A stretch of 38,896 nucleotides of DNA from Acidimicrobiales bacterium (GTDB lineage Bacteria; Actinomycetota; Acidimicrobiia; Acidimicrobiales; RAAP-2), in the NCBI GenBank assembly GCA_030043315.1, contig JASHYA010000156.1, positions 1 through 38,896 on the forward strand, given 5' to 3'. The notes under the pieces were generated by a model. The model did no database searches and was not told the origin of the DNA. It saw nothing but the letters and a program-made list of their open reading frames with translations. Below are positions 37,026 to 38,896 of the stretch, piece after piece (the stretch's first letter is position 1; each line of letters starts with the position of its first letter). The position numbers were made by a program, and so were the translations under genes.

Positions 37026-37436
37026 TCAGCGCGCCGGCCGGACCACCACCTCGAGCCGGTCCAGCCGTTCCCCCGTCTCGTGGGTGAGGAGTGCCAGGAC
37101 GCCGGGTGCAAGAGCCCGCATCTGCGTCGCCCACGGCGGCTGGTCGACAGCCACCACCAGCGTGCCGCCCTCGAGTCGCAACGGCCGCGCGTGACGCGCC
37201 ACAGCCGGCCCGACGAGCTGCTCCCACCTGGAGAAGACCGTGCCGAGCGTGGACGCCGAGATGCGGCGCGCCACTGGGTCTGGCGGTGCCGTCTGGTCGC
37301 CTTCGTCTCGGGCGTTCGGCGTCTTCCCGGACGCCCGCGGCGGCGTGAGCCCGCCCACCAGGTCGTCCAGCGACTCCGACACCGGCCGGGGCCCCTTGTC
37401 GACTCCGTCGCGTGAGCGGTGTCCGCGTCGTGTCAC
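37026..37436 (-). CDS. DciA/DUF721-type protein (replicative helicase loader)
   Basis: 136 residues. The start is the GTG at 37436, overlapping the recF TGA as GTGA; the longer open frame upstream is only the shadow of recF. The C-terminal DUF721 domain (about residues 60-136) reads ISASTLGTVFSRWEQLVGPAVARHARP, then GGTLVVAVDQPPWATQMRAL, with the conserved W and AxH motif of the family. The N-terminal half is polar, with KGPRPVSESLDDL preceding. DUF721 proteins were identified as DciA, which recruits DnaB in bacteria lacking DnaC/DnaI. The position between recF and gyrB is the standard actinobacterial location. Confidence 0.92.
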   Translation of the reverse strand: MTRRGHRSRDGVDKGPRPVSESLDDLVGGLTPPRASGKTPNARDEGDQTAPPDPVARRISASTLGTVFSRWEQLVGPAVARHARPLRLEGGTLVVAVDQPPWATQMRALAPGVLALLTHETGERLDRLEVVVRPAR

Positions 37437-38551
37437 GCCGAGCACCCCGCGGTCCGGACGTCGACGACCGCACCGACCTCGATACCCTCGGGAAGCACCG
37501 TCGCCGTGGTGAGCAGCGCCTGGCCCGGCGGGAGATGGCGCACGAGCGCGCGGCCGCGATCCGGGTCCAGCTCGGAGAAGACGTCGTCGAGGAGCAAGAG
37601 CGGCGCACCGCCCCGGCGTTCCGTCACGAGCTGATGCAACCCGAGCCGGAGCGCCAGCGCGAGGCTCCGCTGCTCGCCCTGAGAGGCCCGGGTTCGGGCC
37701 TCTCGCCCCTGGATGGACAGGACCACCTCGTCGCGCTGGGGTCCCACGGTCGAAAGAGCTCGGCGGAGGTCGTCTCGTCGGCTCGCCGCGAGTGCGTCGC
37801 CCAGCTCCCCCTCCCAACCGGCCACATAGGACATCGTCACGACTGGCCCGTCGCCATCCGCCCCGGCCAACGCCGCGTAGTCGGCTTCCACCCTGGACCG
37901 GGCGTCCGCAACGAGCGCACTCCTGGCATAAGAGACAGCTTGTCCGTACCTGACGAGCCGCTCGTCCCAGACGTCGAGAGTCGACGCGACCTCCGGAGTG
38001 AGCCGGCCACCCGCCTGCCGAAGCAACGCTGCACGCTGGTGCAGGACCCGGTCCATCGCGTCGAGGTCCGCCGCCGCGCGGTGGTCGAGCAGGCGCAGCG
38101 CGGCATCCAACAAGGTGCGTCGCCTTACGGGTGGCCCTTGCACCAACCCGAGGTCGTCCGGGGAGAAGACCGTGACCGGCACCGCGTCCGCGAGCTCGGC
38201 CCGTCCGTGCACCACCTGGTGGTTGACGAGCGTGCGCGCTCCACCTCGCACCGGCAGCTCGCTCTCGACGAGCACGGGACGAACCTCACGCTCCAGCTCC
38301 GCGCGAACGATCGCCCGATCCTGTCCGCTCCGCACCATCGTCTCGCGCGCGCTCGTGCGGAACGACCGCTGGGACCCGAGGTAGGCGATCGCTTCGAGAA
38401 GGGTGGTCTTTCCGGATCCGTTCGGACCGATCAGCACCGTGGTCGCGTCCGGCACCACGTCGAGCCGGGCTTCCGCGAACAGCCGGACGTCGCGCAGTTC
38501 GAGGTGGCGCAGCTGCGTGCTTGCTTCCCGCGGGTACGTCGCGGCCGTCAT
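37433..38551 (-). CDS. recF: DNA replication/repair protein RecF
   Basis: 372 residues. The start region TQLRHLELRDVRLFAEARLDV matches RecF openings. Walker A is GPNGSGKTTLLEAI, FRTSARETMVRSG follows, and the signature and Walker B region ASQGEQRSLALALRLGLHQL...LLLLDDVFSELDP is complete. RecF binds ssDNA-dsDNA junctions and loads RecA with RecO and RecR. ATG at 38551 is the only plausible start, giving standard length. Its normal ribosome site appears to have been displaced: an IS200/IS605-like right end stops about 10 bp upstream, and the nearest GGGGAGGA, inside that end, is 15 bases from the ATG. Translation initiation may be altered. Confidence 0.95.
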   Translation of the reverse strand: MTAATYPREASTQLRHLELRDVRLFAEARLDVVPDATTVLIGPNGSGKTTLLEAIAYLGSQRSFRTSARETMVRSGQDRAIVRAELEREVRPVLVESELPVRGGARTLVNHQVVHGRAELADAVPVTVFSPDDLGLVQGPPVRRRTLLDAALRLLDHRAAADLDAMDRVLHQRAALLRQAGGRLTPEVASTLDVWDERLVRYGQAVSYARSALVADARSRVEADYAALAGADGDGPVVTMSYVAGWEGELGDALAASRRDDLRRALSTVGPQRDEVVLSIQGREARTRASQGEQRSLALALRLGLHQLVTERRGGAPLLLLDDVFSELDPDRGRALVRHLPPGQALLTTATVLPEGIEVGAVVDVRTAGCSA

Positions 38552-38570
38552 GGCCCGGGTTTGACGTCCT

Positions 38571-38590
38571 CCCCGCCCTGAAGGGCGGGG
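38571..38590 (-). ncRNA. 3'-terminal hairpin of a putative TnpB-associated omega (reRNA) scaffold
   Basis: Perfect 8-bp stem with a four-base loop, placed ten bases inside the element end. In TnpB systems this stem-loop precedes the variable guide transcribed from flanking DNA. Here the would-be guide (38541-38560, minus strand) covers the recF start codon. Whether an RNA is made is unknown. Confidence 0.4.
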
Positions 38591-38615
38591 ATTCCTGCCT
38601 CCCCCGTGCTGTCTC

Positions 38616-38896
38616 TCACGCCGCAATGAGGGTGGTGTGAGCCGTAGGCACGGGTTGTGCAGGGTTCGCCCGAGCAACTCCGTCGCCGCGAGGCCGGTTG
38701 AGCCTCTTGTCGCGGCGCGCCACCGCATGCGGGTGATGCTGCTGCCCGCACCGTGAGCCTCGCTGCTTGCTGATGTTGGACGCCGGGTCCCCACAGACGT
38801 CGTCGCGGGTGAGGAGAGCAAGGGCTGCTTCCTCCACGTCCAACAGGTCGACGACCTTCCCGTCCACCTGGGTGGGGTGGACGTAGAGGGCCAAAA
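38616..38896 (-). CDS. Unidentified partial ORF within the insertion remnant
   Basis: An open frame of at least 92 codons enters from the right edge and ends at 38616. It contains YVHPTQVDGKVVDLLDVEE followed by a segment with two Cys (DDVCGDP, GSRCGQQHH) and a Pro/Arg-rich tail. I recognise no transposase or nuclease domain. It may be a decayed element gene or only non-coding scaffold. Confidence 0.2.
   Translation of the reverse strand, partial: LALYVHPTQVDGKVVDLLDVEEAALALLTRDDVCGDPASNISKQRGSRCGQQHHPHAVARRDKRLNRPRGDGVARANPAQPVPTAHTTLIAA

What the first reader, a model, noticed from the sequence alone, without database searches (positions are those of the whole stretch)
38541..38590. TnpB-type right end stops about 10 bp before recF; its guide would read recF's start codon
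The hairpin plus AGGACGTCAA end abuts the recF leader. In TnpB systems the RNA guide is the DNA just outside this end, here the stretch with the recF ATG. The insertion probably lies between dnaN and recF and has removed the native recF ribosome site. A transcript crossing the junction would be both the recF mRNA leader and the omega RNA.
Basis: partly seen in the sequence, partly recalled or inferred. Interest (0 to 1): 0.6.

Follow-up and report, generated by a model that had tools for sequence, protein, structure and literature searches.

The report
IS605-type transposon inserted between dnaN and recF
A common kind of bacterial jumping gene, carrying the RNA-guided nuclease TnpB, sits exactly between the replication gene dnaN and the repair gene recF, so its guide RNA would read the start of recF; this follows the known rules for such elements and is a tidy but ordinary example.

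Summary
Window 38561-38896 (minus strand) is the right part of a transposon that is 98-99% identical to three other places in the same genome. Its boundary is 9 bp before the recF ATG. It encodes the last 92 residues of a TnpB, a stop codon, a strong hairpin and the end GGACGTCAA.

The left end lies on another contig (C55), directly behind dnaN...GTGTCC TGA C|CAAGTGG. So the element sits between dnaN and recF. Removing it leaves 10 nt between the genes, against 11 nt in the closest empty-site relatives.

All left ends seen are preceded by TGAC, and guide and cleavage tetranucleotides fit the IS608 TnpA pairing rule. Relatives of this TnpB carry a Y1 TnpA gene just upstream.

The predicted guide contains the recF start codon, but its proper target (TGAC plus guide) is the empty dnaN-recF site, not recF in the occupied chromosome.

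The claim that the native recF ribosome site was removed is not supported. A shared omega-RNA/recF leader is plausible but untested. This is a new member of a known kind; regulation or domestication is not shown.

The parts
38561..38896 (-). Right part of an IS200/IS605-type (IS1341-like) element; runs off the contig end
   Evidence: 98-99% identical copies at C239, C330, C286, all ending at this boundary
38616..38894 (-). 3' end of tnpB: last 92 codons plus stop TGA (38616-38618)
   Evidence: Same frame as the end of the intact G012 TnpB; copy L008 starts 'DRLSAFLALYV...', the RuvC-III region
38571..38590 (-). Right-end hairpin CCCCGCCC-TTCA-GGGCGGGG, 3' stem-loop of the predicted omega RNA
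38591..38594 (-). GAAT at the 5' foot of the hairpin: right guide tetranucleotide (GR), identical to that of IS608
   Evidence: sequence; IS608 rule from PMC5934647
38561..38564 (-). TCAA, right cleavage site (CR), last bases of the element
   Evidence: sequence; same tetranucleotide in IS608
38561..38670 (-). Predicted omega RNA scaffold (5' limit approximate), overlapping the end of tnpB
   Evidence: folding z-score -3.7; position rule from PMC8612924 and PMC10278001
38545..38560 (-). Predicted 16-nt guide ACCCGGGCCATGACGG, containing the recF ATG (38551-38549)
   Evidence: inferred from the rule that about 16 nt outside the right end form the guide (PMC8612924)
37433..38551 (-). recF, intact 372-aa reading frame
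   Evidence: SMC_N/RecF Pfam hit; 61-76% identity to 10 genus relatives with a full-length match

Best explanation
An IS200/IS605-type element that carries tnpB and, as far as seen, no tnpA of its own has inserted between dnaN and recF, immediately 3' of a TGAC whose TGA is the dnaN stop codon. Its right end (hairpin, then GGACGTCAA) lies 9 bp before the recF ATG. It was most likely moved as single-stranded DNA by a Y1 TnpA acting in trans or since lost. If tnpB is expressed, the 3' end of its transcript becomes an omega RNA whose guide is the first ~16 nt outside the element, here ACCCGGGCC-ATG-ACGG. With TAM TGAC, TnpB would cut chromosomes that lack the insertion at this site and thereby favour its retention or restoration. 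The occupied site is spared because GTCAA, not TGAC, precedes the guide match. Shown by sequence: the two ends, the insertion, TGAC, the hairpin, the tnpB fragments. Inferred: trans mobilisation, omega RNA production, nuclease activity, TAM use.
For: Shared 336-bp repeat ending at 38561. dnaN followed by the left end on C55, with dnaA next to dnaN. One dnaN and one recF match in the genome, and the two genes are neighbours in the relatives examined. TGAC before all three own left ends and the G012 left end. GL CAAG with target TGAC and GR GAAT with CR TCAA fit the IS608 rule, in which AAAG goes with TTAC and GAAT with TCAA (own reading of that rule). guided_TnpB matches at 8e-20 and 3e-15. The residues that align with the RuvC D, E, D are kept in own and relative proteins. 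Y1 TnpA directly upstream of homologous tnpB genes. Conserved hairpin with two-sided changes. No near match of the guide elsewhere in the genome has TGAC before it among the seven inspected.
Against: C55 and C240 are joined by synteny and by the element, not by a read or a single contig. The middle of the recF-proximal tnpB copy is not resolved, and the C172 copy is frameshifted, so this copy may be inactive. TnpB scores lie below the curated NCBIfam and Pfam cut-offs. No Y1 TnpA was found in this genome, which is 59% complete. No RNA data.
Confidence: 0.9

Rival explanations
1. The hairpin is a native recF leader, for example a regulatory structure of the dnaN-recF operon, with no mobile element.
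For: It lies just before recF on the coding strand and is strongly structured.
Against: The same 336 bp occur next to unrelated sequence at three other places. Nine of ten genus relatives have dnaN stop and recF match 11-67 bp apart and the tenth overlaps, without the hairpin. tnpB coding sequence is directly adjacent.
Confidence: 0.01
2. The element is domesticated: the omega RNA/TnpB complex binds or the omega RNA leader controls recF (or dnaN-recF) expression, as TldR proteins control host genes.
For: All parts are co-directional, the guide spans the recF start codon, and the right end brings a GGAGG sequence 16 nt before the ATG.
Against: RuvC residues are kept, at least four recent copies lie elsewhere in the genome, and none of the ten genus relatives examined has the insertion. 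In the occupied site the guide match lacks TGAC, so the complex is not expected to bind there.
Confidence: 0.04
3. A dead, non-autonomous remnant: tnpB is broken or silent and the insertion is only a neutral scar.
For: No TnpA found; one own copy (C172) and one relative copy (L095) have disrupted tnpB frames; the middle of this copy is unresolved.
Against: 98-99% identity between copies suggests recent movement; the C261 copy is open for 468 codons up to the contig end; the C-terminal frame at 38616-38894 is open.
Confidence: 0.3
4. An IS607-type element (serine recombinase) rather than IS200/IS605.
For: NF038280 IS607_TnpB matches weakly.
Against: IS200_TnpB scores slightly better. Subterminal hairpins with guide/cleavage tetranucleotides at both ends and Y1 TnpA upstream of homologous tnpB genes.
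Confidence: 0.03

Closest known systems
IS608 (Helicobacter pylori, IS200/IS605 family)
   Same: Subterminal hairpins; CR TCAA and GR GAAT identical; insertion 3' of a tetranucleotide that pairs with GL (PMC5934647).
   Different: Target TGAC with GL CAAG instead of TTAC with AAAG; no tnpA seen in the own element.
ISDra2 TnpB/reRNA (Deinococcus radiodurans)
   Same: RNA from the 3' end of tnpB and the right end, with about 16 nt of flanking DNA as guide; TAM equals the insertion target; expected target is the emptied site (PMC8612924).
   Different: TAM TTGAT; here TGAC is inferred from insertion sites only. TnpB 408 aa there (PMC10821889 abstract), about 546 aa in the closest intact relative here.
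tnpA-tnpB elements of the same order (loci L096, L097, L098, L099, L106)
   Same: Homologous TnpB (about 41-49% identity to the G012 query); where both ends of tnpB are seen (L096, L097) the right end has the same form, GGAATCCCC...GGGGAGGAGGTCAA.
   Different: They carry a Y1 TnpA directly before tnpB, which the own and G012 copies lack.
TldR, TnpB-derived RNA-guided transcription factors
   Same: A TnpB-type guide next to a host gene.
   Different: TldRs act as regulators (abstract of PMC13418256); here the RuvC residues are kept, copies are several and the occupied site lacks the TAM.

Membership tests
IS200/IS605-type element | Multicopy unit with constant ends and different flanks | tested here: met
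   Four right ends, three left ends
IS200/IS605-type element | Insertion 3' of a fixed short target, no target duplication | tested here: met
   TGAC before three own left ends and the G012 left end; dnaN-recF flanks join to the spacing of relatives without duplication
IS200/IS605-type element | Subterminal hairpins with guide and cleavage tetranucleotides that pair | tested here: met
   LE: CAAG before hairpin, TGAC target; RE: GAAT before hairpin, TCAA end (rule)
IS200/IS605-type element | Y1 TnpA in the element | tested here: not met
   None in the G012 full copy or in the 59% complete own genome. TnpB-only (IS1341-type) members are known; homologous elements have it
TnpB RNA-guided nuclease | RuvC D, E, D and zinc finger | tested here: met
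   FDMGPS, AEALDY, DRLSAF regions and CxC...CxxC conserved with relatives; assembled from several copies, not from the recF-proximal copy alone
TnpB RNA-guided nuclease | Score above curated family cut-off | tested here: not met
   NF040570 71.4 and 56.2 bits against cut-off 100; PF07282 17.9 against 26.3: a divergent subfamily by these models
omega RNA (reRNA) | 3' stem-loop within 10 nt of the guide, overlapping the tnpB 3' end | tested here: met
   Hairpin ends 10 nt (9 nt if the closing U-A pair is counted) before the guide; criterion from PMC10278001
omega RNA (reRNA) | RNA present and bound to TnpB | not testable with these tools
   Needs small-RNA sequencing or pull-down
TldR-like regulator | Loss of RuvC catalytic residues, single conserved locus, guide to a promoter with TAM | tested here: not met
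   Catalytic residues kept, multicopy, no TAM at the occupied site; definition from own knowledge

The most novel reading that the evidence does not exclude
The insertion has made a working regulatory link: the omega RNA is the recF leader, TnpB processes or covers it, and RecF level is thereby tied to TnpB; with the dnaN stop codon supplying the TAM, the element also enforces itself in the replication operon of its host lineage.
Probability: 0.05. Interest if true: 0.6.

Novelty: new member of a known kind. Interest (0 to 1): 0.25.

Why it matters
It shows a clean case in which an IS605-type element sits in the dnaA-dnaN-recF operon without loss of coding sequence, because its TGAC target coincides with the dnaN stop codon. 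It gives a natural locus where one transcript could be both a guide RNA and a host mRNA leader, a conflict that can be tested. As a mobile element it is ordinary.

Tried and rejected
Native leader hairpin: rejected by copies elsewhere and by empty relatives. Rfam: no match at gathering threshold. Self-targeting: the best second match of the guide (C317, one mismatch in 18) is preceded by CGGTCACG, and the six three-mismatch sites inspected also lack TGAC; the other nine three-mismatch sites were not inspected. Preference for stop codons: two of three own left ends (C55 dnaN, C261 carotenoid-oxygenase-like ORF) have TGAC on an upstream stop codon, but C172 and G012 do not; too few for a claim. 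A class-wide search for the left-end pattern found few convincing further ends outside the own genome, and the one scan of genome contigs returned only the G012 record. Pfam on the C-terminal 92 aa alone gave nothing. A literature search for TnpB with TAM TGAC found no relevant paper in the held library. MAFFT misplaced the bulge in two hairpins, so pairs were counted on a hand alignment. No structure prediction was run: the family was clear from profiles and motifs.

Full report
Observation. On the minus strand the window reads ...GAATCCCCGCCCTTCAGGGCGGGGAGGACGTCAA|ACCCGGGCC-ATG, the ATG being that of recF (37433-38551, Pfam). The window is the whole of contig C240 of a 348-contig genome estimated 59% complete. 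The last 336 bp (38561-38896) recur at 98-99% identity on C239, C330 and C286, and similarity ends at or within one base of 38561 in every case while the flanks differ. The hairpin motif occurs only at these four places, none for the reversed control. It is therefore a transposon right end, not a recF leader.

Content. The reading frame at 38616-38894 (minus) is the C-terminus of a TnpB. It aligns with the end of an intact 546-aa TnpB in a genus relative, G012. That protein matches NCBIfam guided_TnpB at 3e-15, and the N-terminal 468 aa in the own genome (contig C261) match it at 8e-20, both below the curated cut-off, so this is a divergent subfamily. The residues that line up with the RuvC D, E and D are kept. 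Homologues in other families of the order have a Y1 TnpA gene directly upstream; the own genome shows no Y1 TnpA, though it is incomplete.

Other side. The only dnaN in the genome is on C55, with dnaA beside it. C55 breaks off 91 bp into the left end of the same element, which begins right behind dnaN: CGGGTGTCC TGA C|CAAGTGGCGAGCGCAAGCCCCGTCC. The join of C55 and C240 through the element is inferred from synteny: of 29 related genomes whose junction was read, 28 have dnaN directly before recF (overlapping or up to 67 bp apart) and one, G042, has 634 bp between them. The joined flanks give TGA-C-ACCCGGGCC-ATG, 10 nt between the genes, against TGA-CGGGCGCCCCG-ATG, 11 nt, in L023 and L026 and a near-identical L024. 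So the insertion is precise and nothing appears lost. TGAC at the dnaN stop is present in all ten genus relatives read.

Ends and target. Three own left ends (C55, C261, C172) and that of G012 are each preceded by TGAC. In IS608 the target TTAC pairs with the guide AAAG, and the right end TCAA with GAAT (PMC5934647). Here the right end has TCAA and GAAT unchanged, and the left end has CAAG at the hairpin foot with target TGAC: the one change in the target (T to G) is matched by one in the guide (A to C). This is my reading of the published rule and supports the IS200/IS605 assignment. The right-end hairpin pairs in 86 of 88 cells over 11 related ends, with two-sided changes at five pairs.

Mechanism. 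TnpB-bound RNAs derive from the 3' end of tnpB and the right end, and their last ~16 nt come from the flanking DNA (PMC8612924); TnpB can process the 5' side of its own mRNA but not the 3' side (PMC10278001). Applied here, the guide is ACCCGGGCCATGACGG, which contains the recF ATG. The matching target with TAM is the empty dnaN-recF site. In the occupied chromosome the 5' neighbour is GTCAA, so no cut is expected. Near matches elsewhere that were inspected have no TGAC before them. TnpB activity, TAM use and RNA production are inferred, not shown.

Effect on recF. recF is intact. The native ribosome site was not removed: the relatives have only 11 nt there and no obvious Shine-Dalgarno sequence. 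The right end brings GGAGG, 16 nt before the ATG and partly in the hairpin, at a long spacing.

Verdict. The finding is a well-resolved new member of a known kind. Interest is modest and rests on the placement in the dnaN-recF operon.

Noticed in passing
L010 (G000:C261) 1403-1405 and L056 (G000:C55) 89-91: In two of three own left ends the TGAC target overlaps the TGA stop codon of the upstream gene (dnaN; a carotenoid-oxygenase-like ORF), so the insertion spares the upstream gene. Could be selection; too few cases.
   Followed up: partly
L065 (G000:C172), reverse complement 1-300: Another copy lies inside an antisense gene with a HEAVPGHHFQ motif (DUF885-like, from memory), and its tnpB has a frameshift.
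   Followed up: no
L007 (G000:C239) from about 337: The right end of a further copy runs into what looks like an antisense egtD-like (histidine methyltransferase) gene, judged by eye from the translation.
   Followed up: no
L049 (G042): 634 bp separate the dnaN stop from the recF match in this order relative, unlike all others read; the content was not identified.
   Followed up: no
L008 (G000:C330) 348-355 and L051 (G012) end: Some right ends read GTCAC where most read GTCAA, so the last base of the cleavage site varies or belongs to the flank.
   Followed up: no
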